Below, piece by piece: positions 14,337-34,000 of a stretch of DNA of 64,000 bases. The notes under the pieces were generated by a model. It worked only from the letters and a program-made list of their open reading frames with translations, ran no database searches and had not been told where the DNA came from. The stretch is from Onthophagus taurus. Lineage: Eukaryota > Arthropoda > Insecta > Coleoptera > Scarabaeidae. The position numbers and the translations under genes were made by a program. Each line of letters begins with the position of its first letter. Within the stretch, counting starts at the first letter, position 1. The stretch covers positions 23,684,001-23,748,000 of the forward strand of contig NC_091976.1 of assembly GCF_036711975.1 (NCBI RefSeq), given 5' to 3'.

Positions 14337-17300
14337 TTAAAATGGCAAATAATTATAAGGAATGGTAACTCTACATATCGGGCAACTACCATTGTTTCTT
14401 AACCACTCCATAATGCACTAAAATGTAAATAAAAAAGTTAAACAATCAAAATTAACAAAAAACATAATTACGTTATTGTGAAATAAATGCCCACACGATA
14501 ACGGCATCTCATTTTGCTCGATTTGATCTAAACAAATTGGGCATGCATTAATCTCAGATTGAGTATTCTTGTCTGATTGCGAATCATTTTCCCAAAAACG
14601 TAAAATATTATTAGTGGCATCATCAATTATGCTACTTTTAAATGTTAATTTTAAATACTCAACGACATCTTCAAGCTTTATCTCTTTAAAATTAACGTTT
14701 TTTTGGGATTGCACAACTTTAATCGCTCCATTTATTTGCGTAGTCGTACAAAGCGGCAACAAACTTTGAATTTTTGTAACAAAAGTATCAAATTCATCAC
14801 GAGCTTTTATCTTTTTTAATTTTCGTCGGCTTAATCCACATAACGGGGGAAAATCTTCATCTGATGGCTCTATATATGGTTCAAAACTTTCACATTCTTC
14901 GTTTAGAGTTTCATCTGGATTTTCATTAAGATCCTCATTAAAACTATCATTTAAATAATTGAATTCTCTATGTGGTTGAGGTAAATCATTTGAGTAATAA
15001 CCACCACCACATGCTTCATCTTGAAGAGCCCATCCTTGAAAAAAATTGAAATCTGGATTATTTTGATTCCTTCGTTTATTGTTTCTACATATAGTTATTA
15101 ATTTTGCAATCAAATCAAGCATTAAATTTGGTTGTTCAGTTAGGTTTGGTTCCAATACATAATCTGTACTTAATATTTCAACAAACTGATTGGAGTGTAA
15201 AAGTCGTAGAATTTGTTTGTGTCTTTTATCAATTGATTTGTTGTAATGTTCAGCTTCGTTTTGATAGTGTGATATAGTCCAAGAAAGATGATCCACATCC
15301 TCTTTTAAATCTAACTTTATAAAATCGGAACGTAACGCTGTTAACATTGCATCAATACTTTGTAATTTTTGTTTGGTTTGTTCTCCTGTGGTTTTTTGAA
15401 GATGATGGAGAGAAGTAAAAGCAGATTGTATGATCTCTAACATAGTAGTTTCATGATCAATATAATTTTCTCTTAAAAAATAAATAAATGAAGATAAAAT
15501 TAAGACGATTAAAATAAAATAAATAATAATAATTAAAAGAAGACGAGAAGATACCTTGATTCTTGTATTTCATCTTCAAGGTGATTAATTTTATTTTGAG
15601 CAGCTTTAAGATTCTAATTAACAAAAAAATAATTATGTTATTAAATCAATACTACATGTAGTTAGTCACAAAAGACTAGATACACCACCTAAAAGAAATG
15701 GAAGCAAAAAATTTGCTCCCAATCGTTAAACATGGTCGATGGCGGCTTCTGGGCTAGGAAATTTAATTTTTATTGATGGTATCATATTTGGAAATATTGC
15801 AAGGCAATTTGAAAACATAACTTGTTTTTTTTTAACAAGACAACGATTCTAAGCATACCATTCATGTTGTCCAAGAATGGATTCTTTCTTCTTGAAAAAC
15901 TAGCGGATCCAGAAACATATCAGTTATGGAACACCCAGGTCAGAATTTTACTTAAAATACATGATCTTGATAAAATTGCAGATGGCCTACAAATAAACCT
16001 TAAAAAATTAACTAAAGAAGAAAAAAATGAATGGAAAATAAAAGATGCAAAAGCACAAAGTATAATAACCACCACATGCTTCAAGTGCAATAAAAAAGGT
16101 CATATTGCAAGAAACTGTAGGGAAAATAGTGGAAAAGAACAACAGAAGGACAAATGTGGAATATGCAAGAAGAAAAATCACGCTGCAAAGGATTGTTATT
16201 TTAGAATTATACATCGTGATGTTGTTTTAAGATTAGATCAAGAACTTAATCAAAAGAGGAACGAAATTGATGAACAAATTAAAGAAAAAAACAACTCAGG
16301 AAGTCCAAAAGGAAGAATATAGAGAGAAGAAAAACGAAGAAAATCATGATAGAAGGGAACAAAGAACAAGAAAACCACCTGTAAAGTTCAAGGACCAAGT
16401 ATATTTGACATTTGATGAAGTAATAAATGGTGAAGATAAGAAAAAATGGTTAGATGCAATAGAAGAAGATTGAAGTTGAATCAAGTATAGGAATTAGTAA
16501 AACGCGAAGAAATTAAGGGACAAAAGGTATTGAGTAATAAATAAGCTTTATAAGGAACTTATAAAGCCAGATTAGTGGTAAGAGATTTTGAACAACCAAA
16601 AGAACACATAGAAGAGTTATTCAGTTCTACAGCAAGTATGAGCTGTATTAGAGCAATATTAGTAACAGCAACTACAGAAGCATGTAAAATAACAAAATTA
16701 GATATAAAAACGTTTTTTTTTGTATGGCGAACTGAAAGAAGATATCTACATGAAGATACCACAGGGATATAGCAATCTAAACAATATAAACCAAGTGCTT
16801 GAAAAATTTTAAATTGACGACAGTAAAAAAACTAAAATACCATTAAGGTAAAACGAAGCGATAATCAAGAGATAAAGAAAGACTTTGCATATAAAGAAGC
16901 AGTAAGCAGTTTACTATACTTAACTAACAAAACCAGACTAGATATGTTAAAAATACAAAAAAATGTGACGTAACTGATGTAAAAAGAATTTAAAATATCT
17001 ACATACAAACAAGGATTTTGGAATCGAATATACGCTTGGAACTGTAAGGAGTTCTACATATCAAGAGTTTTATGGAAGAGTTGATTGGTGAAGAAATACA
17101 AACAACAAAGCTTATAGACAATAGAAGTGCTATAGACTTGATCAATAATGGAATTTTAAACAAAGTAAAGATATTGACGTTCGTTTTCATTTTATACATG
17201 ATGTATTACACATTATACAGAGTGGTTCAGCTTTTAATCGGGGATTTAATTTGGGCATCACTAAAGAGTAATAAATACTACATTCTTAGATAGTTTAGAA

Positions 17301-20300
17301 CTTCCATGCAATGTGGAGTTTTTTTAGGGGATGACCACCCCTATATTTTTTAAATAGCAATCCCTGTCGAGTTTTACCTTATTTTAAAGGTAATGAAAAA
17401 AGAAGCACAACCCCATATAGCAAAACCCGATATCTTAATTCTATTATATATATGATATGATAATTCGATTATTAAGCAAGAGTATCATTTTTTTAAATAT
17501 TGTTTAAAACAACGTAATTTGTTAAGACAAACATTCATCTTATTTATGGTTTTTCTTATAAAAATCACAATCAATTGGTGTTATTTAGTTAGTACTAGAT
17601 CCTAGTAAGTGCACAACTTCCATAACCAGCTATAAACAATTTTTTTAACAATAGCATTGCTTTACAGTACAATGTAGCATATTTTATTTTTTTTACGCTA
17701 AAACAAAAAAAAAGTACCAGTAATAAACAAGCTTTATAAGCCATACCTTTTTATATTAATATTCCATGGCGTTAAAAAGTTGTTATAAAAAAATCAAAGG
17801 GGTTGTGAATTTCATCCCCTTAGAGGGCGCTAGGGAAGTTTAAGGTGTGATTGAAAATAAGGTTAACCAGTAGTACATACATACAAAATTTTAAATTCTA
17901 TGGTTTACTTATACCCGAAATAAAGAATAAAATGTAAATTTTTGGCTCAACTTTGACAGCTCATAGCTGGAAAACAAAAGAGTTGCGACCATATGTTTAT
18001 ATAAAAAACTTGTTTTATTTTGGCAAGTACTACGTCCTAGTAAAGTTTCCCGATTAGAAAGCTGAACCATCCTGTATATGATATTTATATAATACAAGTG
18101 TCCCACCTAAGTTGTCTTAGCCCATAGCCGAATTATGATTGAGTTTTGCAAAAAAAAGTTTCAGATAAAAATTGAATCGAATCATATTGTACATATTTTA
18201 AAATTAGTTTCAGTAATGGCGGACTTCAGCTTCTACCGGAAATGGATATCAACTTTGTTATTTTAAATAGAACACCTGTATTTACTGCATTTTTGGATTC
18301 TTTGTGAAATTTCAATGGTACTTTGTTAAGGATAGCTTAGCTCTAACTGGTATCGTTTTTGAATTATATGACGATTTTCGAAAAAAATGACTTTTGCAGA
18401 GTCTTATAAATTTGGTAATACTTAACAAATAATACTTTGAAAACCAGTTCTAATACATGGAACACTAATGACAGTTCTAACGCGTGGAACATTAATGACA
18501 GTTTATCTAGTTTGTTTTCCAAGCCTACTTCAACTTTAATAGTATTGCAAAGCGTCCACCACCAATTTTACCAGTCGCTGCAAATGTAATTTTTTTCGAA
18601 AATCGTCATATAATTCAAAAACGATACCAGTTAAACCTTATTTGAAAAAATTTTTGAAAACCTCAATCATAATTCGGCTATGGACCGAGGCAACTTAGAT
18701 GGGACACCCTGTATGTACATGATATAGTCATATCAAAACGAATTAAATTGATCCACTATAATAGTGTAGATAATTTAGCAGAGATTTTTACTAAACCATC
18801 AGAAAGGATTAAATTTGAAGGATTTAAAGATAAACTAGTTGTTAGAATTAAAGTTATTGTTGTGTAAAACTTCGTTTTTTTTACTGGGGTGTGTTATGTT
18901 TGAGTTTTAGTGGTATAAACAAAAGTCAAGTAGGTTAAATGACAATGTAAAAATATGATAAAACACCACTATACCCAAATACTAGTCAATGTAACAGAGA
19001 ATCTTGTTCTTTCTATGCCAAGACAACTCCATGCAGTTTTGAATTTGTAAGGTGGACCTAGGGAATATTAAAATTTTTGTATTTGACTATGATTAACTTA
19101 ATAATGTCAAGTTTTATATATTTTATATGTGTATGTAGACTTTTGTGAGCTGTTAATTTTAGTTTAAATTTTTTTCCTAAGATTGTATTATAATAAAATA
19201 GTTATGGTGTTTCAAAATTGTCTACATGTGTAGTAATAAATATTTTTAAAACGAAATGTTCAATAATATGACGTATTATTTAACTGGAGTGAATTTACTT
19301 GGTGTACATAGACTTTTGTGACTAACTACACTTAAATTGTTTAAATTCTTTTACCGATAAAGTCTCATTTAATCGTTTGGTTAAATCAGAATTACTTTTT
19401 CGTAATTCATCCACAGTCGTTTTTAATACTGATAATTCCTTATCCTTTTTTTGGTCATTTTTATCCTAAAAATTTAATTTCAATAAAACAACAAAGATTT
19501 AACCTAAAAAAAAATCTTACCTTGAATTTTAAAGTTTGTACCGACTTATTAATTGTTTTTACTAAATCAGTTTGGAATCCTTTAGTGCATGTGTTAACAT
19601 TAACTGTTTGAGTTGACTTATCATTGCTAATAACCTGGTTATTGTTAGGAAGATCTCCCCCCAAGAACATATCAATTTGATCTCTTATTATGGGGAAGAT
19701 GTCATCTCGAAAAATGCTTCCAATCGTTTTAACATCATTCATTTCTAAAAGAAAAAAATTATTTCATGAAAACAAAGACAATAAGATTACCAAAAATGTT
19801 GTTTGTTTTAATATAATTATTTAAAGGAATTTCTTCCATATTTTTAGTATAACCCAAAAACTTCATAATCGAATCTTTTAATTTAATCTCATTCAAATTT
19901 GTTATACTCAAATTTAAATTTTTGAATACTTTTGGTGTGTGAGAAGTTATTTGTGCAAGGCAGAAAGCATCACGCGAACATCTAAATCTAAAATAAAAAA
20001 TTTTAATTTAAATTTCCCACAAATAAGCGCCATCTATCAATTAATAATGTAACTTAATGATAACCTTTATTGTTTACACTTACATGTGACGTTTATTTTT
20101 GACAACTCCAAGCAAAGCAAAAAACAAAGATTCTTGATATTTTTCGGTTAATTCATAAAATAACTCTTCGGCTTCATCCCATTTGCGTCCACAACATAAA
20201 ATAACCGCATTGATAAGCAGGATTAAATCGAAATCTGCTTGGGTCATATCGAATTCTTCTGGACATCCCCCTTTTTCTAAATAGTATCTGATTATCGTAA

Positions 20301-20460
20301 TTGTTTCAATCGCTTTCGAAATGTTAAGTTTTATTAAATGTTTAATAAAACTTTTAACGTTCTTTAGTATTGTGTCTTTTTGCGAGATTTCCACGTCCGC
20401 ACTTTTCTTCCTACGGAATTCTTCTTTTAAGAGGTCGTAAAATGAATTTCCGGATTCCAT
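14337..20460 (-). CDS. RING-H2 finger protein, seven coding exons
   Basis: Coding exons in transcript order: 20460-20084, 19987-19791, 19744-19521, 19465-19355, 15613-15555, 15471-14472, 14417-14337; total 683 codons with stop, all phases closing. Residues 1-190 are alpha-helical with a TPR-like patch (KWDEAEELFYELTEKYQES); residues about 280-340 are coiled coil (including NLKAAQNKINHLEDEIQES); residues 633-671 are a C-terminal RING-H2: CPICLD, CGHLFH, then CIMEWL and CPIC after the last 54-bp intron. All eight zinc ligands are present in C3H2C3 order, so it should be an E3 ubiquitin ligase. The layout (helical N-terminus, coiled coil, terminal RING-H2) is like TTC3/DZIP3, but I am not certain of orthology. 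The acceptor of exon 2 could also be six bases earlier in frame (19981 or 19987). The 3.7 kb intron holds a copia remnant and MITEs. Confidence 0.8.
17218..18075. mobile_element. MITE inserted in the copia remnant
   Basis: Terminal inverted repeats of about 30 bp match between 17218-17246 (ACAGAGTGGTTCAGC start) and the reverse complement of 18048-18075 (ACAGGATGGTTCAGC). Both share the run GGTTCAGCTTT followed by AATCGGG. The insertion cuts the copia RNase H domain. No coding sequence is visible inside, so this is a non-autonomous DNA element of about 860 bp. Confidence 0.75.
18094..18712. mobile_element. Second MITE, long terminal inverted repeats
   Basis: About 50-bp inverted ends at 18094-18143 and 18662-18712 share CCATAGCCGAATTATGATTG and end in GTGTCCCA-type termini. 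An inner foldback pair at about 18351-18390 and 18588-18630 shares AATTATATGACGATTTTCGA. It lies immediately after the previous MITE and before the copia tail. Non-coding, non-autonomous. Confidence 0.75.
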
Positions 20461-21221: not shown

Positions 21222-23432
21222 ATGTATGGGGGCTACATAAGGTATTTATTTCCTCCTCGTTCATATACACTACCGATAATACGAGGAGATCGAGTGGATT
21301 TATTTAAAAGAATAGCTGGGGTTAATCCTGAAGAGGTAAACTAAATTTTTTTCTAAATAAATAAATTTTATGTTATTTTTATGTTTTAGGAAGATGAAAG
21401 CGATGTTCAAATGTCCGCGATCCAATTTATAACCGCCTCCACAATGTATCAAATCAACATTTATTATTTAATTATTTTTATAGATATTTTACTTGCTTCT
21501 GGTGGAGGTAATAATCTCCAACATTATTTTTTTTTAATTTTTTGATGTTTTTTTTTGTTTCAGTAAACGTTTTCTTCTCATTTTTACCTTTACACATTTT
21601 CTTATCGATTCCTTTACTCGTCCTTTTCATATTTATGAGTAGTTACTCCAAAAAGGGATTTTTATGTATGTGGGAATGCGTCCCAATGTTTTCTGGATTA
21701 GGATACAGTTTATTATTATGTCGTTTAACTTTCGCGCTATTCCAAGTTTTTTTTACATTCGTGCCATGTTTACTTCTAATCGATTTAATGACATCTCCAA
21801 CTTTCTCGTATAATTTTAGAAATTGCCCCGGGGATACAAACAATGTTTGTTTCCCAATGTATCCTTTATTCCCGATTAATCGAACTTGCAACACCCCTGT
21901 TTTAGAACGCTCCTTTAACGAAAGCATTTACATGGCGAGTCAATATTATTATAGAATTCATATTTTGGGGTATCACCGACATGATTCAGTACCGCAAATA
22001 AAATTGTTGCACGTTTTCGTATCATTTTTCATCTGGGCGTTTGTTTGTGTAATTTCAATGTTTGGGGTTAAACGGGTTGTTAAAGTTACGATGAGTATTC
22101 AATTAGTTTTGAACGCGATTGCGGTTTTTTCTGTGTCTTATGGGATGATGTTGGGGAGTGATACGCCGATTCCTCAAGTTCATGAATACAATCGAATTAA
22201 AAACATGGATTTTTGGGTCGAAATATTTGTTGTTACGACGGATATCATTGTTATTACCGATATGATATATATGGGGACGTTAAAGCCGAAAAGTTTAACA
22301 TCTTCACAAGCTGGCATATTAATTGGATTTGGAAAAGGTTTCTTTCTTATCGTAGTCATGTTTTTTACAAATCGATGTGCTCATTTGATATTGGGGCATT
22401 ATCGATTTTTGGATACAAGGTGTCTTATTGCGTTTGGTATGTTGGTTAAAAATTAGATTATGAAGATTAGTAAATAAATCATTTTAGGTCATGACGTAAT
22501 GTTTTCTTTTGTACCAGATGTGCTTTATAGGGTTCGTTTTGGTTTAGTACTAACAATCCTTTGGTATTTAGGAATTATAGTCTCAAATATAAACGTTTTG
22601 GTTTTGACAATCATCGGAATGGTTAGTGCTATAACAGAAAAATTTAAAACATTGAGAAGATTCCGATTGCTGGTTTTTTGTGGAATATGTGGAGCGGGCT
22701 TTTTAGGGAGTATTTATTTTTGTACAAACCTTGGGATGAACACCATTTACATTTATCGCACATACGGGGATCTTTATTTTACGACGGCTTTCATGATCGT
22801 GATCAATTTGGCTTTGATGTTTGTGTATTCGATTAATAGGATCATGGAGGATTACACATTTACTTACGGGAATCCCCCGAAAAAATTTTATGTTACTTCT
22901 TGGCAAACGTTTCCTCTATTGGCAATTGTAAGTATGATACAACTAAAATTTCATTCATTTTTTTTGTTTAGTTTGTGTTTTTATTTGTGGTAAGTTATGG
23001 ACAAGAACCAAGTCAAGTTTATATGACTCAAGGAACTTTATTATGGAGTTATATCCACACTGCGATTATGCTTATACCGATTTTTGTGCAAATTTTAACA
23101 AAATGTTTTAAGCATCTTAAATATAGAGTGAGTGATTTTTTGTGATAATCCTTCTTAATAAACTTGGTATGTTCTAGACTTTAAAAACGGTCACTAAACC
23201 GGGTAGTTCTTGGGGCCCTGGGGATGCTTTGTTGCGCCACGCAAGGAAATACTTTTATCCTCAAAGAGATATTCGTTACAGGAATACGCAATTAGTTTGC
23301 CAGCACAGATGCATTTATAATTCCGATAAATATTTTGATGAACATGTTAAACAAATTACCAAAATGCGCGAAATAATTCACAAAATGGGCTTAGAAATTC
23401 GAAGAGATGTATTGATGGATATGTATAAATAA
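21222..23432 (+). CDS. Divergent SLC6-family (neurotransmitter-symporter-like) membrane protein
   Basis: Six coding exons: 21222-21335, 21390-21507, 21564-22436, 22488-22927, 22972-23127, 23178-23432; 651 aa, phases close. About twelve hydrophobic segments fit the LeuT/SLC6 fold. Family marks are the IL1/TM3 entry (CMWECVPMFSGLGYS, compare the usual W-x-C-P-x-F-x-G-x-GYA), a second extracellular loop with cysteines and N-glycosylation sites (NCPGDTNNVC, NES), a TM5-like FGVKRVVKV, and the C-terminal PGSSWGPGDALLR typical of SLC6 ends. The TM1 motif N-V-W-R-F-P-Y that shapes the Na/Cl and substrate site is absent; the equivalent stretch reads ASTMYQINIYYLIIF. The protein is therefore likely not a conventional Na-coupled symporter, although it is under coding constraint (open across six exons). 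Membrane location is inferred. The alternative that it belongs to another twelve-helix family is unlikely given the C-terminus. Confidence 0.75.
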
Positions 23433-25059: not shown

Positions 25060-28000
25060 TCACATAATGGAACAAAGTCCAGAGAGTTCGGCTCCCTTTT
25101 TAACTGGGGCCATTTTTTTGAGGTTGATACCCCGCAGCGCGGGCTTGACGTTGAGCTGGACAGGCTCCTCGCCGGGGGGCAAGGGTTGGGACGGGTCTAT
25201 AGATTCACCACCTTTCTCAATTTCGCTACTCAACTCTTTATTGGTACTACTCTCTTTAGGCGCAATTACAGGCAACGGTTTCGTTATGTTTATTTTTATT
25301 TTACCACTAATACCGGTTGTTGGTTGAACGTTCGAGTCAAAGAACTCTACGTTACCGTCCATATGCGTCACAAGGTCGGTTGGGTGGGCGTCCGTTACCG
25401 GTTCTGAAGTTATTTTTTCAGCTACATCAACTCCCCCACCATCCACTAATAATAAATCGTCACCCTCCAATTCATCTAAATACATAATATTAAAACATTA
25501 ACATTTATTAACTCGTACAAAAAATTTACCTGGATCAATTGGCTCGCTTTTTATCTTCACACTATCAATATCCATTTTAAAAATAGCGCCATCAACATCA
25601 ACAAAACCATCATCAATCGGTTCCTCTTTAATTTGGATCACTCTAGGTTCTAATTTTTCATCGGGGAGATCATCGTAACGATCATCATCAACCAAATCGA
25701 TTTTTTCCGGGACAATTTCATTTATTATTACATCATCATCGTCATCATCATCATTTTCTTCCGGATCATCCGGAAACGCTTCTTGCGATATTTCCTCTTT
25801 ATCTTTAGTTTCAGAAATTTCGGTTAATTTTTCAGATTCATCGTCATCTATTACAATTTCGGATGTGGTTTCTTCCATTTTTTCTTCTGGTAAAGTATCT
25901 AAACCTGGTATTGTACTATCTTGGGTTGTTTCATCTTCTTTTTCTATCGCTGAATCCTCTAATGTTGTATCAACTAAAGAGGCCTAAATAAAAAAAAAAT
26001 GTTTCAAATAATAATTTTAATAACAATAATTATTATTTATTTACTTGGTAATCTTCATAACATAAAGGATGATAATTCAATCCATCAACACAAATAGCTA
26101 GTTTTAAATGCCACTCTTCCTTTTCTTCATTATAAAACTGATCGAAACGATCGTGACAAACTTCGCATCGGGGATCTTGTATGTTTGGGTCAGCGGGAAC
26201 GCTAGGAATTTCAATTTCTTCCTCAATCTCGTCATTGCCTTCGGCTTGCGCTTGCTGTTGGTTTTCAAAGTAACTTTTTTCACGCTCCTCTAAATCTTCG
26301 ATTTCTTCGTAATTTTTCCAATCGGATAAAGAATAATACCACCTGCGACTGGCTGCTTTTCGAATATTCTTTTTTCCCTTGCGATTTTGCCGGAAGTGCC
26401 AATCGAGATGTTGGCTATACTGCATGCTTTGTTCCGGTGGGAAACGCATTCCGCACGTACTACACGGCATCCCTGAATAAAGGGAATGCACTAAACTCGA
26501 ATGCCGAGTTTTTAAAGTTTCTGGCTTATCAAAATTAACCGCTCTGTAAAATTGTGGCATTTCCTTTCTTAAGAAACTACTAACTGGGGTGATTTTGTGA
26601 GGTGGTGAAGGTATTTGGGGTAATTTATTTACGATATTACTATTCACAAGAGGAGGATTAATGTTTTTATTAATTATTTGGGGGGCTGGTATTGTAACTT
26701 CGGGGGTTACATTTTTTTGTTCTTGCAATGTGGTCATTATTCCAGTTGCGACTAATTTTTGGAACAAATCGTTAATATTTAAGGTTGTGGGAATTAATGG
26801 AGCTGGATTTGGTGTTGTTGTTGTCGATTGGCTAACAGGTACATCGTGAATTTCTTGAGGTGCTTCTTGCATCGGAATTTCTTTCGGTTGATTTTCAACT
26901 TGATATCCATTTGTACTTATATTTAAGTTTGTTGGGTTTGCAAGTAAGTTTGATGCCATAACACTCGATAAAACACTATCTAAGTTATCTAAAAAAAATA
27001 AATTAATTTAGCTTGTAATATACTGTTGGAAATAATTCACGAGCACACCCTGTATAATCTGAACGCGTCAAGATAAATTCATAATATTTGCGGAGCATAA
27101 AGATTTACTATAAATGAGTTTATTAAGCGAGTTTTGAGTTTTTCTGTCGCGGCATTGTTGACTGAGCCACCCTTCCAAGTGTGGTCGTTTTTAATGTGGT
27201 GTGTGCATATACAGGGTGTATCAGGTATGAGTAGAAAAAATATGAGGGGTTATAAGTCCCTTTCTTTGTCCTTCTTAAGATATGATACGATCAAGTTAAG
27301 GGTTCACAAGTTTGAGTACCACTTAAGTTAATGAATTATACTAAGCAGGCTTTGCTTTGCAATTTGTAATTTGTTTGTAGTTTTGTAATTTTGTTTTTTT
27401 TTTAATACAATAAGCAAGTTTGTCTATTAAAACCTAAATTTTCGTAAATTTTCACATTAAAGACTGATAAAACAGAAGTGATAAATTTATTCGTATAAAC
27501 AACCTCTAAAAAAGTATCTCAAAAATGACTTTCATGCGTCAAATTAAAGCTATACAGTGTGTCCGTAAAGTAACGGATATAGGCGATAAAATCATTATAA
27601 ACGGTTTATAGAAAAATCCCTGAAACGGGTCTAAAGATTTAAATTTTTTGCAATTGTTTGGTGTAGATTTTAAATTTCTTCCGCCATTTTTAAGCGAGTT
27701 ATGATGTCATCGGTATATTTTTCAAATGGCAATCCCTCATTTTTATTACGAAATATGAAAGAAGATTTTGCTGAGCAAGAAAACCCTCATGTTACTGTAA
27801 GGAGTATTGGGTCTAATTTCGACATATAAAGTAAACTTAATTCACGAGGAATGAATCGTAGTTTTTGCAACAACAATTTTGCAACGATAACGAAGACTTT
27901 GTCAAAAACATAATTTTTTCGACGAAGGGACATTTACATTGAGTGAACAAGCAAATAGACAAAGTTGTCGGTATTGCGCTACCCAAAATCCAAATTAGTC

Positions 28001-31000
28001 AAGAAAGTCGCACACCCAATATCCGCAAAAGATTTGAGGAAACCTTAATAAATTTTTTCCGAAATGTTTATAATGACCGCACGAGAACTGTTTAAAGATG
28101 TCCAATAGCGGATTCACGGAAAAAGTTTATTTTTCTTTCCGTGTCGAATGTATTGCTGAGTACACGTGAGAAACGTGTTATGAGGTGGGGCCGATTACCT
28201 GTGTCTGATTTACGATTTACGCTATTGGTCGATTTTAAACAATTCTCGTGCGATTATCATAAACATTTCGAAAAATATTTATTAGAAAAATCGTTTCAAA
28301 GTAATGTATCCTTCAACCGTATAATGCTCTGATCCGGGAAATACGGGACACGCTGTATATATCGGTGTGAGGGAAAAGTTTGTTGTCGTACTGTATGCGC
28401 AATGGAAGGGCGATCGCGTTACTTAAACGAGTTTGAGCGAAAACTGATTGTGGGTATGCACATTGAGGGTGCATCGTTCCGTGGAATTACGCGTCCTCTC
28501 GAACGGTCATTATCGGCAGTGCAACGAGCATGGCGAAAATGGTCTGAGCTAAGACATACTCAAAGCAATTTGGAGCTGTTGGCCATCGGGAAGGGAAGGC
28601 GCACTTACTACGCGAATTGTACGGCGGCGTTTGGTACAGCGGATTCTAAAGAGTGTTTTTTATAGAGGTATAGAACTTTAAGTTGGCAACACTTTTTTAA
28701 CTGGCGGCCATTTTGTCAGCTGCCAAGTGATTTATGTTTAGTTTGGTTTGGCATTTCAACATGAATATACTGACGCATGAACAACGCTTCCAAATTGTGC
28801 AAATTTATTTTGAAATTACAAAACCATGTCAACATAATCGTCCGTCAGAGCAATTAGTTCGGTTAACTATGGAACGTTTTCACACCACGTTTACTCTAAA
28901 TGATAATACGCATCCACAGAGACGTCGTACAGTGCGTACAGAAGAAGTCATTGCTGCTGTAGAGCGTAGCGTAGAGGAAGTTCGGGTCTTCCTCTACGCT
29001 ACGCTCTACCGCCATCTCAGTCTATCCGCCATCGTGCACAGGAATTGGATATGTGTCCATCCACTTTATGGAAGATTTTGCGGAAAGATCTTGGTTTGCG
29101 TGCTTACAAAATCCAACTCGTGCAAGAATTGAAGCCACACGATCACCCAGTAAGGCGTAGATTCGGTAAATGGGCCCAAAACAAGATTGCCGTTGATCCA
29201 GATTTTCATAAACGAATTTTGTTTAGCGATGAAGCTTGTTTGAATGGATACGTCAATAAACAAAACTACCGTATTTGGAGTGATGGTAATCCTCAAGTGT
29301 ATGTTGAGACACAAAAACTGACTGTTTGGTGTGCTTTATGGGCGGGTGGAATCATTGGTCCGCTATAGAGCCATGATTACTGACTTTTTCGTTCATCAAT
29401 TGAACAACTATGATGTGCAGGACCTGTGATTTCAACAAGACGGCGCGACATGTCACACAGCTCGTGCCACAATTGATTTATTGAAGGAAACGTTTGGTAA
29501 CCGCATAGTTTCACGTTTTGGACCCAAGATCGTGCGATTTAACGCCGCTAGACTATTTTCTGTGGGGATATGTGAAGTCGCTAGTCTACGCCGATAAGCC
29601 CGAAACGATTGACCACTTGGAGAACAAGATTTGCCGCGTTATTGCCGATATACGGCCACAATTGTTGAAAAAAGTCATCGAAAATTGGACCTCCAGATTA
29701 GACTACGTCCGATCCAGCCGTAGCGGTTATATATCAGAAGGCATATTTAAAGTATAATGCCAGAAGATTATCTTTCGAATAAAATACATTTCATGGCAAT
29801 TTAAACAATTTATATGCGTTTAATTCCATATCAAAGTTCTTTACCTCTATAAAAAACACCTTTACTAACACCCTAGCACCGCCGCATACGTCACGAGCGG
29901 GTCGACGCTAGACATTAGTGAGTTGCTGAGTGGAAGGACACTTTGTTTTCCGACGAATCAAGATTCGAATTGAGCGTCTACTCGAGCAGTGCGTGCAAGA
30001 ACGCCCTATCCACCGCCTTCCAAGCATTATGGAATGGGGTGCAATTACACATGGTGGACGTACACGTCTGCTATACATGTACGACAACTCCCGGGGTCTG
30101 TGTTGTACAGACCTTTGTAGAAAAGCACAGTACACGAATGCTTCCATGGCCAGCTCATTCTCCGAATTTGAATCCGATCGAGTTATGTTTGGGACATAAT
30201 TGGTCGGAAACTTCAACGTTATCTGGTCTCCTCAGCTAACGTTGAGGAACTATGGAGGAGAGTAGAGGCGGCATGGTTGGCCACATACCAAATTTATATC
30301 GCGCTAGACACACGCGTTCAGATTATACAGAGTGTGCTCGTGAATTATTTCCAACAGTGTATAAAAAAAGAAATTAATAACTTACTTAACCCCGTTTGTT
30401 GGAATAAATTAGGAACTGGCGAATTTGAATTTCTATCGGGTGATTCAACCCCGATAAGTTTCCGCTTTTTAGCAACCACAGGTAAAGCAGGTTCATTAGC
30501 ATCAACAACCGGGAAAGCTTCCATACTATTCTCACTCTCAATTTTAGGACTATCCGGGCGAAATCCTTCCATATCTTTAATCCTAACAACCCCAGGATGC
30601 ACCCCGCGTGGTAACCGCGTAAATCGAATAAAATGTTTTTTTTCCTGCACAATAATCGGTTTTGGAAGTCCCCCATATTCGACGGTAAACGGAATTTCAT
30701 TAATCATCACCGTTTTTAAAGCGTCAATAAATTTAAGTGTATTTGGTTTCCCGTCGATTTCGAATTTTTGTAATTTTCCGTCTAAATAAACGGGAACGAC
30801 CGTTTTCGCATCGATTATTAAATTAATTTGTCCGGCGACTAAATCTTTGCGTATTTCCGTTCCGATTTTAACTTGAGGCGGGGGTCCCTCCATTTTCAAA
30901 GAGGTCAATTTCCCGTCGAGATCGATAAAGACTTGCGGACCGCCAAAAAAACATTCGTAATTTTTTCCGTCGACGTAAATCTCTCGAGTCGGCGCCCCCA

Positions 31001-34000
31001 ATTTCACGTTGTGCGGACTTCCGTTAATTAACACTTCCTTATAAGGTTCGTTAAATGACAAATAATAAATATCTTTATCGCCGAAAATCACTTTTCTTAC
31101 TCCACTTTGAAACGAGATCTCTTTCGGCTCATCCCAAGACATGAAAATAATCGCGGTTTCGTCGTAGTAACGGATATCTCTTGGGTACCCATCGATATTT
31201 ATTGATTTTGTGTTATCTTGATTGGCACAATCGACGACTAATTCTTGTGGGCTATTTTCGGTTGTTGTTTGTTCTTGTTCTAAACTATCCAAATCAATAA
31301 CTTCGTTGTTGTAAATTGGTGATTGTTTTATAAAATTTGATTGCATTGGTTTCCATGGCCCATTTAATGGTCGTGGCCAATTCTCTCCTGGTCTCATGGG
31401 TAGCCGAATTCCTCCTCTGATCATTCCTCGTCCTCTCACAGGACGTCCCCGCCACATTCCACGTCTTAAATCACCTCTATCTGGGCCTCTTGGAAATTTG
31501 TTAAATTCGTTATTATTAACTTGAGGTACTCTATCATCTTTATCAACATAAATGTTTCGTCTAAAAGTAGCTGTATCTTCATCGGAACTACAACTAAAAT
31601 TAGCTTCTAATTCATCATCACTAATCGGTTGTAATGTAATATTTCCCAAATTCTCTTCGTTATCCTTTCGTTTTGCTTCATTTAATTTTTGATTTTCCAT
31701 TTGCGCCAAAATCTTGTTCATTAACGCCTTTTCTTGTTCTTTAGTCATATTTCCGGTTTTTATGCATTGTTCATCAGCGGAAGATATTATTATTCGACTC
31801 ATAGAATCATCTGCACTATTAGTTCCACCACGCAAATCAGTATCTTTTTGTTTCTGTTCCTGTTTAGTCCTTAATTTTTCCCTATTCGTAGCATTAGCTA
31901 ATTTCGCTCTTAATATATCTAACTTTTTAACCTTTTCTGACTTTTCTTCTTCAGGTTTCGACGAAATAATTGGAGGAGGCGGTGTTGGGGGTCTATCTTG
32001 AGAAGGTGTATTTACCACGGATGTAAGTTGACGCAAATCTGTATCTTCATTACCAAATAATCTAAAAATTAAAATTATCGTTTCGAGATTATTAGCACCG
32101 ATTATTAATAAAGTAAACATACTCATCAAACACCTCCGTTTTCGATTTTTTGCTAGAAACGTTTAAACTCGGGTCTGGATTGTCAGTTGAAGAACGTTTC
32201 TTGCTGACCATCGAAGGTAAATGTCTTAAATCGACGTCCATACCTGTCACAGTGAGATCATCTGTAGAACCTACGAAAGCTTTTTGTGTTAGTAATTAAT
32301 TTGGAATTGTTAGTTAATTGTTAGAACGAAATATGGTGTTAAATAATTATCTTTTTGGGAATTAAGCATTTTAAAAGATTTTACAAAATGGGCTTCTCCA
32401 CTACATTATTACGAAAATCTTTGTATAAACTCGATTTATTATTTGTAGACTATTTGGTGATATCAACTCCACAGTAAGAAAAGTGTGCCCATCCGAGACC
32501 CGGTGCGTGGTGTGACTTCTAAATTTCTGATCACAGAAAAATTTCTTGGTCACCACCGAGTCTCGAACCTCGATCGCTTAGCGCAAGCCGAGACCGCTGG
32601 GCTATCACGCCACAAAGAAGATAACGCAGTGCATAATGCTTATTAACACAAATAATTCTAAGATCAACTAAAAACAAACTGTGGGTAACAAAGGTAACAC
32701 AAGAACAACAAAGGACCAGAGACAAAAATTAGAAGCTTACGGACTAAAGAAACCTGCATGGGAAAAAGAAACCTCATATATAAAGAAATCCTATGTATAC
32801 CAAACCGATAAACAAGACTTAACCAAGAAAAAAACAAGAATAGAACTTAATCTTATAAGGACATTGCACTTATATACTTCCAATGAAATTCCACTGTATA
32901 CAGTGTGTTAATTAATTATATTATGGTACCCGAGATCATCATTGCAAGTATGCAACCAATATCGCAGTATAATATAACACGCGATTTGCGTATTACAATA
33001 CCAATACTGTGATATTGGTTGCATACTTGCAATGATGACGTCGGGTACGATAACTAATTAACACAGTGTACTTATTAAGGAAATGGGCAATAAACAATCT
33101 ACTGAAATGGCCAAGTTGAACATCTCTTCACCAACGGAGAAATCTCAAGGTCATGTTAGGATCAAACTCACGTCAAGGTCAAAATATACTATTTAACCTT
33201 CGCTTTTTGACGCTATTTGACAATCCCCCTCGTCGTAAAACCACGTAACCTTAACCTTGATGTTCCAGGGGAAGGTTCGTCAATCCGTACTACTTGAATA
33301 GATAAAAAACTGTCAAAAAACAAATTAGAATGTGTTCATCAGTGTTTTTCTATCTGTGTGTCTAAGTCGATGCTATCTTCATTATAAGACAACAGATAAA
33401 AAAGCCAATTGAGTACGATAAACCTATATTCTTTCGTTTTTGTAGTCTTGAAGCAAGCCTTCGACAGATTAATGATAGGAAACATATTTGATCTACTAAG
33501 AGAAGAGGTAGATGATGGATATACCTTCTACGAATCATGTTATGCAGACGACGCCATACTGCATAAAAGCGGAGAACGAGGACTATGTAGCGCGCAAACT
33601 GTACAGATTTATAATAACAGAAAAATTTAATATGCAAATAGTGTGCGAGAACATCAATGAAGAGTAAAATAAAAGACCAAGTAATGACGTTTAAGTATCT
33701 GAGGTTGGAACTGGACATGATGAGAGATCTGGTAGTGCAGGACATGGTGAGATGGACCAGAACGTGACGTCAGTAATGGAGGGACCAGGTTGATAAGATG
33801 AGCTAGACACGAATGGGCACAAAAACCAGGAACCAAGCGTCCAATTAGAAGAAACGCTGGACATCTTTATCACAAGAAGGAATGAGACAGAACTAGATCT
33901 TATAGCAGGACGAATAAGAAGAGAAAAAATAATAAGTCAACAAAAACGAAATTTTTTGTTTCCATTAATAATTATTTAGCTCAGGAGCGCGCGCGTGCCA

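What the first reader, a model, noticed from the sequence alone, without database searches (positions are those of the whole stretch)
21222..23432. SLC6 paralogue without the canonical TM1 ion-binding motif
The protein keeps SLC6 landmarks (IL1/TM3 entry, EL2 cysteines, SWGP C-terminus) and an intact six-exon frame, but where the family has the near-invariant N-V-W-R-F-P-Y it has MYQINIYYLIIF. The unwound TM1 coordinates Na and substrate in characterised members. This suggests a non-transporting or differently driven membrane protein kept by selection, perhaps an insect-specific expansion.
Basis: partly seen in the sequence, partly recalled or inferred. Interest (0 to 1): 0.7.

Follow-up and report, generated by a model that had tools for sequence, protein, structure and literature searches.

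The report
SLC6-like protein without sodium sites
This gene, apparently from an insect, encodes an intact relative of the sodium-driven neurotransmitter and amino-acid transporters whose ion- and substrate-binding helix has been rewritten, as in several sister genes of the same genome, so it probably no longer works as an ordinary sodium-driven transporter.

Summary
Six exons (21222-23432, +) splice into a 651-aa SLC6/SNF protein (PF00209, 47.8 bits) without N-V-W-R-F-P-Y in TM1; that stretch reads Y-L-I-I-F-I-D. It is not a missed exon: a scan of the window found no canonical TM1, and a 49%-identical paralogue (L051) has the same kind of TM1 in the same exon. The gene sits in a seven-gene clade of its own genome (ultrafast bootstrap 100). 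In this clade TM1, usually the best-conserved stretch, is only as conserved as the rest (ratio 0.87; canonical 1.57). In the window protein the residues aligned with Na1, Na2, Cl-, the TM6 glycines and the gate pair are all changed; sister genes keep some. The protein is under purifying selection (omega against L051 below 0.1). New: all 6 clade members readable there, and L034 outside it, have a Lys at or beside the TM7 Na1 Asn; L058 does not. Divergent TM1/TM6 in insect 'Orphan' SLC6 proteins is already in print, so this is a new variant of a known kind. Best reading: an SLC6 fold that lost Na+/Cl--coupled transport and serves a non-transport role; Na+-independent transport is the main rival. 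Function untested.

The parts
21222..23432 (+). Whole coding region of the SLC6-like gene, six exons, 651 aa
   Evidence: GT-AG spliced frame without internal stops; PF00209 47.8 bits
21222..21335 (+). Exon 1, N-terminal segment (residues 1-38)
   Evidence: corresponding exon in paralogue L051
21390..21507 (+). Exon 2, whole of the altered TM1 (residues 39-77; QFITASTMYQINIYYLIIFIDILLASGG)
   Evidence: same exon in L051; NVWRFPY position = Y64..D70
21564..22436 (+). Exon 3, TM2 to TM7 by alignment (residues 78-368)
21824..21826 (+). EL2 cysteine C165
   Evidence: same residue in all 19 sequences of the three groups
21887..21889 (+). EL2 cysteine C186
   Evidence: same residue in all 19 sequences of the three groups
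22241..22243 (+). TM6 Asp D304, aligned with the LeuT F253 position; D/D/D/E/T/Q in the six core clade members, H in L034
22259..22261 (+). TM6 Asp D310, within the part that replaces the unwound GLGLG; D/D/D/N/H/N in the six core members, D in L034
   Evidence: alignment, read by eye
22334..22336 (+). TM7 Lys K335, at or beside the Na1 Asn/Asp (LeuT N286 position)
   Evidence: Lys in 7 of 7 sequences; the most hydrophobic setting (mean KD 2.35) of the four charged positions of clade 1 that pass the test (others R248 1.34, D371 1.46, D379 1.28); 12 of 14 MAFFT runs place it exactly
22488..22927 (+). Exon 4, EL4, TM8 and following helices by alignment
22972..23127 (+). Exon 5, last helices
23178..23432 (+). 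Exon 6, C-terminal tail (TKPGSSWGP...ARKYFYPQRDIRYRN...CQHRC) and stop codon
23298..23312 (+). C-terminal CxHxC motif (C608, H610, C612)
   Evidence: tail motif found in 13 of 18 divergent loci scanned, in the window, and in 0 of 7 canonical loci

Best explanation
The gene encodes an intact SLC6-fold membrane protein of a divergent branch that has lost the machinery of Na+/Cl--coupled transport: in the window protein the unwound TM1 (Na1, Na2 and substrate contacts), the unwound TM6, the TM7 Na1 residue, the TM8 Na2 pair, the Cl- residues and the extracellular Arg-Asp gate are all replaced. The scaffold, the EL2 cysteine pair, the IL1 loop and a tail with WGP...CxHxC are kept under purifying selection. 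Most likely it works as a non-transporting SLC6-like protein (receptor, partner subunit or trafficking factor) acting through its conserved cytosolic IL1 and C-terminal tail, with the core held by an internal charge network that includes the TM7 lysine K335, perhaps paired with TM6 D304 or D310. Shown here: gene structure, homology, motif loss, clade, selection on the whole protein, invariance of the lysine in the clade members read. Inferred: absence of coupled transport, the salt bridge, the cytosolic side of the tail, and the non-transport role.
For: Intact spliced frame and SNF match; a profile of six clade members matches GlyT2 and GlyT1 chains at E about 1e-27. The 49%-identical paralogue shares the altered TM1 and its exon; further paralogues have the same kind of TM1. 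In the window the residues aligned with G20, A22, G24, G26, N27, W29, R30, P32, the TM2 Tyr, T254, G258, G260, N286, T354, S355 and D404 all differ from the canonical ones. TM1 identity relative to the rest: canonical mean 1.57 (15 of 15 pairs 1.36-1.94), clade 1 mean 0.87 (15 pairs, 0.57-1.18), second set mean 0.58 (10 pairs). Purifying selection: omega against L051 0.047, 0.1 already rejected on the profile, LRT against 1 = 260; TM1 plus IL1 (79 codons) omega 0.14, LRT 23; C16 against the C-half of C3 omega 0.257, LRT 46. CxHxC tail. Canonical intramembrane charges lost, one Lys gained.
Against: No transport, binding, expression or usable structure data (the exon-3 model has mean pLDDT 44). 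Sister genes keep some canonical residues: C3 keeps G26, N27 and F31; C16 G24; L053a, C16, C3 and L034 the TM2 Tyr; L053a and C16 a TM6 Gly; L034 has R at R30. dS between window and L051 is saturated (9.3), as in two further pairs (L053a-L053b, C16-L056), so only the rejection of omega=1 is firm, and a pairwise omega does not say which lineage is constrained now. TM1 alone is only marginally below neutral (15 of 30 identical, omega 0.28, LRT 3.8). Loss of glycines does not prove loss of transport. LeuT site numbers are partly recalled.
Confidence: 0.5

Rival explanations
1. Sodium-independent carrier: the protein still moves a substrate, but a tethered cation, the TM7 lysine K335 at the Na1 position, does the job of the bound Na+, much as Lys154 of BasC sits at the Na2 site and Arg262 of CaiT is proposed to replace Na2. 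It would then be an exchanger, facilitator or proton-coupled transporter.
For: Lys in 7 of 7 sequences aligned there (six core members and L034) where the six canonical members have Asn or Asp; the span from the TM6-end Gly to K335 is 20 residues, equal to the Gly-to-Asn span of the canonical member L046 (sequences); precedent for basic residues at Na+ sites in the same fold (PMC6472337, passages); in KAAT1 the residue at this position (D338) affects ion selectivity (PMC8310414 passages).
Against: The window protein lacks the glycines of the unwound TM1 and TM6; TM1 is no longer preferentially conserved; L058 of the sister group lacks the Lys; the Lys placement is exact in 12 of 14 MAFFT runs, but HMMER alignments to GlyT chains differ by -1, 0 or +3 and hhalign leaves TM6-TM7 unaligned.
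Confidence: 0.28
2. Ordinary Na+-coupled SLC6 transporter whose TM1 is supplied by a missed or alternative exon.
For: Only a priori plausibility; the gene has small exons.
Against: A 24-residue canonical TM1 core scores at best 25.7 in six frames of the 64-kb window against 104-115 on canonical members (a TM1 split by an intron would escape this scan); exons 1-3 are separated by introns of 54 and 56 nt; L051 has the same TM1 in the same exon; TM6, TM7, TM8 and gate residues are changed as well; the NVWRFP DNA pattern occurs at 8 places in the genome, none in the window.
Confidence: 0.02
3. Recently dead gene (pseudogene) whose frame has not yet broken.
For: Weak constraint on TM1 alone; one paralogue (C3) may be damaged (read by eye).
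Against: 651 codons intact over six exons with all splice sites in order; omega well below 1 at 49% protein identity; the five paralogues aligned with it, at 27-49% identity, also give open spliced models.
Confidence: 0.05
4. Transporter with an altered but still ion-coupled mechanism, such as another monovalent ion or a non-canonical site, diversified per paralogue for different substrates.
For: The K+-accepting KAAT1 and CAATCH1 have altered TM1 site residues and Asp at the TM7 position (PMC8310414 passages); silkworm Orphan-branch genes are expressed in testis, silk gland, midgut and Malpighian tubules (PMC5085708 passages).
Against: The KAAT1 changes described are a few substitutions; here Asn, Arg, Pro and the glycines of TM1 and TM6 are all gone in the window protein.
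Confidence: 0.15

Closest known systems
GlyT1/GlyT2 (SLC6A9/SLC6A5), best-matching solved chains
   Same: SLC6 core matched along 5-550 of 593 profile positions at E about 1e-27, with KP..WGP (GlyT1) at the start of the C-terminus
   Different: The window protein has other residues at the TM1, TM6, TM7, TM8 ion positions and the gate pair, and is 15-16% identical to the six canonical members of its own genome; CxHxC tail not seen in canonical loci
Insect 'Orphan' SLC6 branch (BmCT1-L, BmSLC6-14, -15, -16 of silkworm; PMC5085708)
   Same: Reported as SLC6 proteins with more divergent TM1 and TM6, unknown function, inferred altered substrate binding
KAAT1/CAATCH1 (insect NAT-SLC6)
   Same: Insect SLC6 proteins with altered TM1 ion-site residues and a charged residue at the TM7 Na1 position (D338)
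   Different: They transport amino acids with K+ or Na+; here Lys, not Asp, and the TM1 motif is gone
BasC / LAT transporters and CaiT (Na+-independent members of the LeuT-fold superfamily)
   Same: A basic side chain at a Na+ site (PMC6472337 passages)
   Different: There at the Na2 site from TM5; here at the Na1 position from TM7, with the TM1 and TM6 glycines gone; only a functional analogy

Membership tests
SLC6 / neurotransmitter:sodium symporter (PF00209 SNF) | Significant match to the family profile over the whole core | tested here: met
   47.8 bits against cut-off 27, profile 10-519 of 524; 6 of 6 clade members match at the E 1 limit (best 9.5e-14; other members' scores not shown)
SLC6 / neurotransmitter:sodium symporter (PF00209 SNF) | EL2 disulfide cysteines | tested here: met
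   C165 and C186 the same in all 19 sequences; the disulfide itself not tested
SLC6 / neurotransmitter:sodium symporter (PF00209 SNF) | TM1 N-V-W-R-F-P-Y with unwound GLG | tested here: not met
   Y-L-I-I-F-I-D and N-I-Y; this bars the label 'Na+ symporter', not homology to SLC6
SLC6 / neurotransmitter:sodium symporter (PF00209 SNF) | Na1, Na2 and Cl- coordinating residues | tested here: not met
   Aligned residues changed in the window; G20/N21/A22/N286 assignments from PMC8310414 passages, others recalled
SLC6 / neurotransmitter:sodium symporter (PF00209 SNF) | Na+-coupled substrate transport | not testable with these tools
   needs uptake or electrophysiology
Insect Orphan SLC6 branch | Divergent TM1 and TM6 | tested here: met
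   alignment; criterion from PMC5085708
Insect Orphan SLC6 branch | Phylogenetic grouping with BmSLC6-14/-15/-16, BmCT1-L | not tested
Na+-independent carriers with a basic residue at a Na+ site (LAT/BasC, CaiT) | Basic residue in a Na+ site position | tested here: inconclusive
   K335 at or beside the Na1 position, 12 of 14 MAFFT runs exact; placement varies in HMMER and hhalign
Na+-independent carriers with a basic residue at a Na+ site (LAT/BasC, CaiT) | Unwound TM1 substrate-binding segment retained (recalled criterion) | tested here: inconclusive
   No glycine at positions 24 or 26 in the window (N, Y), but helix shape was not established: the exon-3 model lacks TM1 and is of low confidence

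The most novel reading that the evidence does not exclude
A lineage of SLC6 proteins has replaced the Na1 sodium ion with a built-in lysine (K335, TM7), probably paired with new TM6 acids, giving a sodium-free SLC6 that either transports without Na+ or is locked by an internal salt bridge. It would be a natural case of a bound ion turned into a side chain within the neurotransmitter-transporter family, with graded intermediates in one genome (C3 keeps S-L-G-N; L036, L038 and L039 keep parts of the motif).
Probability: 0.2. Interest if true: 0.75.

Novelty: new variant of a known kind. Interest (0 to 1): 0.48.

Why it matters
SLC6 transporters include major drug targets, and their TM1 motif is usually treated as near-invariant (recalled). 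In this one genome thirteen gene models that can be read through TM1 lack N-V-W-R-F-P-Y: window, L051, L052, L053a, L053b, C16, C3, L034, L058, L031, L032, L033 and L041, and the window's clade shares a lysine near the Na1 position. If the clade is non-transporting, it is a natural set for asking what the SLC6 scaffold does besides transport. If it transports, it shows how the fold works without sodium. The range of TM1 states in one genome makes the loss of ion coupling open to ancestral reconstruction.

Tried and rejected
Alternative TM1 exon: scanned six frames of the window with a TM1 core profile from seven canonical members of the same genome; nothing close, though a TM1 split by an intron would escape. 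Pseudogene: made unlikely by frame and omega. hhalign of canonical against clade profiles left TM6-TM7 unaligned and did not help with K335. Thimgan 2006 and Boudko 2012 are not held. Passages seen but not used: PMC3029318, PMC4726445. Literature searches were judged from their listings; one search used 'lysine' with 'Na2 site' and 'SLC6' with 'Na1 site', 'lysine', 'tethered', 'insect' (8 of 11 papers listed); no listed title or abstract start describes a Lys replacing Na1 in SLC6. No search asked about a CxHxC tail, so nothing is claimed about print there.

Corrections to my notes: note 6 says the CxHxC tail is in 14 of 18 divergent loci; one search shows 13 of 18 (missed: L036, which is degenerate; L037 and L058, which are cut short; L038 and L039, not fully modelled). 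C-termini of some canonical loci may lie outside the stretches held. Note 5 gives a lower bound for omega near 0.005; the profile does not in fact exclude lower values.

Full report
Gene and observation. The gene was rebuilt from the window: exons 21222-21335, 21390-21507, 21564-22436, 22488-22927, 22972-23127 and 23178-23432 on the + strand, five GT-AG introns, 651 codons plus stop. Pfam finds only SNF, PF00209, 47.8 bits against a cut-off of 27, over profile positions 10-519 of 524. The best-matching solved chains are GlyT1 and GlyT2 (with a six-member profile E about 1e-27). The TM1 motif is not. The protein is 15-16% identical to six canonical SLC6 members of its own genome.

Is TM1 really altered, not missed? 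A 24-residue TM1 core profile from seven canonical members of the same genome scores 104-115 on those members, 25.7 at best on any of six frames of the whole window (a stretch at 26416, opposite a minus-strand frame) and -24 on the actual TM1. A TM1 split by an intron would escape this scan. The introns on both sides of exon 2 are 54 and 56 nt. A tblastn of the protein against its own genome found a paralogue at C2:13616954-13620002 (L051). Spliced alignment gives 308 identities in 627 aligned residues, the same exon around TM1, and a TM1 of the same kind: QFVTACLIYQTNIYHIFNFIDIL against QFITASTMYQINIYYLIIFIDIL. The stretch between the conserved F and GG is 24 residues in the window and in canonical proteins, so the alignment there needs no gap; in 14 of 14 MAFFT runs the canonical Asn column holds Tyr in the window, residue Y64. 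DNA for N-V/I/M-W-R-F-P preceded by the usual Gly-containing residues occurs at 8 places in the genome, none in the window (the pattern misses monoamine-type members and intron-split ones).

The clade. Other paralogues: C11:23.960 Mb (L052, YQTNMYY), two tandem genes at C2:6.467-6.472 Mb (L053a YQMNANY, L053b QHTNLNY), C16:0.356-0.363 Mb (YECGMNS), C3:16.468-16.484 Mb (LECSLGN, which still holds L-G-N), and a looser group L034, L037, L058, L059. A second set of divergent paralogues (L031, L032, L033, L041, L042, L035) follows; L031, L032, L033 and L041 have a TM1 without the motif, while L036, L038 and L039 keep parts of it. L035 and L059 could not be read through TM1, and TM1 of L037 and L042 is uncertain. 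In an unrooted maximum-likelihood tree of 25 models (561 columns, LG+F+R4, ultrafast bootstrap) window+L051 has support 100, the seven-gene clade 100, with the L034 group 100, with L036 95, with the second set 98, and with L039 86. Long branches make the deeper joins uncertain. The models come from my own spliced-alignment script, guided by homology; some are partial.

Ion and substrate sites (six canonical members as reference; LeuT numbers from PMC8310414 passages for G20, N21, A22, N286, otherwise recalled). In the window: G20 M, A22 Q, V23 I, G24 N, G26 Y, N27 Y, W29 I, R30 I, P32 I (F31 kept); TM2 Cl- Tyr F; TM6 T254 position I and glycines 258 and 260 T and M; TM7 N286 K; TM8 T354 N and S355 V; TM10 D404 R. 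All six canonical members keep N27, W29, R30, F31 and P32. Sister genes keep some canonical residues: C3 G26, N27, F31 and the TM2 Tyr; C16 G24, the TM2 Tyr and a TM6 Gly; L053a F31, the TM2 Tyr and a TM6 Gly; L034 R30 and the TM2 Tyr; this list is not complete. N27 is changed in the other six of the seven clade members, N286 in all six that could be read.

Constraint. The ratio of TM1 identity (38 columns) to identity elsewhere is 1.57 on average in canonical members (15 of 15 pairs, 1.36-1.94), 0.87 in clade 1 (15 pairs of six genes, 0.57-1.18) and 0.58 in the second set (10 pairs of five genes). Pairs within a set are not independent, and TM1 of L042 in the second set is uncertain. A pairwise codon model gives omega 0.047 for window-L051 over 594 codons, with 0.1 already rejected (2 delta lnL 4.6) and omega=1 rejected by 260; dS is saturated (9.3), so the figure itself is loose. 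TM1 plus IL1 (79 codons): omega 0.14, LRT 23. TM1 alone (30 codons): 15 residues identical, omega 0.28, LRT 3.8. The N-terminal part gave only 7 aligned codons and says nothing. C16 against the C-terminal half of C3, where dS is 1.28: omega 0.257, LRT 46. C16-L056 and L053a-L053b also reject omega=1 but are fully saturated (all). The protein is maintained, while TM1 has fallen from an especially guarded stretch to an average one.

New positive features. K335 in TM7 is Lys in 7 of 7 sequences aligned there (six core members and L034), where canonical members have N,N,N,D,D,D. In a test for charged positions kept in at least all but one sequence within hydrophobic surroundings, clade 1 with L034 shows R248 (mean hydropathy 1.34), K335 (2.35), D371 (1.46, not in L034) and D379 (1.28); K335 has much the most hydrophobic setting, and the canonical Arg, Asp and Glu that pass the test are lost. 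Exact coincidence with the Na1 Asn holds in 12 of 14 MAFFT runs; the HMMER alignment to GlyT1 agrees, those to GlyT2 chains are off by one or three, and hhalign leaves the region unaligned. L058, in the sister group, lacks the Lys; C3, L037 and L059 could not be read there. The tail ends in a CxHxC motif in 13 of 18 divergent loci scanned, in the window, and in none of 7 canonical loci.

Structure. AlphaFold on exon 3 alone (290 residues, no alignment) gave mean pLDDT 44.4 and was not used.

Comparison with what is known. PMC5085708 (silkworm SLC6; Discussion, sections 2.2 and 2.3, first part of the reference list and passages read) describes an insect Orphan branch; it says TM1 and TM6 of its four silkworm members are 'more divergent', similar to Thimgan 2006 (not held), infers altered substrate binding, and gives expression in testis, silk gland, midgut and Malpighian tubules. 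PMC7487162 (passages) treats SLC6 at the level of family size in what I saw. PMC6472337 (passages) documents a Lys at the Na2 position in BasC and LATs and a proposed Arg in CaiT, and PMC8310414 (passages) the role of the TM7 position in KAAT1. The kind of protein is therefore known; the clade described here, its TM1 consensus, its TM7 lysine and the measured shift in constraint are a new variant as far as these readings go.

Verdict. A non-transporting SLC6-like protein is the most likely reading (about one half), a sodium-independent carrier with a tethered lysine the main rival. No experiment or usable structure was available.

Noticed in passing
window 19322-20460 (-): A neighbour gene, pieced by eye from four frames, lies head to head with the SLC6-like gene, start codons about 760 bases apart; no Pfam domain passed its cut-off.
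   Followed up: partly
window 25060-32162 (-): Pcf11-like mRNA 3'-end processing factor: in the piece 26036-27007 zf_PCFS4 is over its cut-off, Pcf11_C and the Clp1-interaction domain under theirs; the piece 30348-32162 gave no Pfam match, so the extent of the gene is a guess.
   Followed up: partly
window 15813-16322 and 16554-16772 (+): Remains that look like a copia-type retrotransposon: zinc knuckle over its cut-off, reverse transcriptase RVT_2 just under; a further short piece near 18673-18867 looks similar by eye.
   Followed up: partly
window 28730-29760 (+): Broken frames that look by eye like a Tc1/mariner-type transposase; no Pfam match for the two pieces tried.
   Followed up: partly
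window 14421-15569 (-): RING-type zinc finger protein, zf-C3HC4 just over its cut-off.
   Followed up: no
L056/L057/L040 (G000:C3:16.468-16.484 Mb): In this paralogue the TM6-TM7 exon was not found in the stretch held and a frame that looks transposon-like by eye lies beside it: a long intron or a damaged gene.
   Followed up: partly
L058 (G000:C1:6382500-6384500): Member of the sister group with TM1 TWAELFTFAICTRFSVSYITVQMYMMTNFG and no Lys at the K335 position.
   Followed up: no
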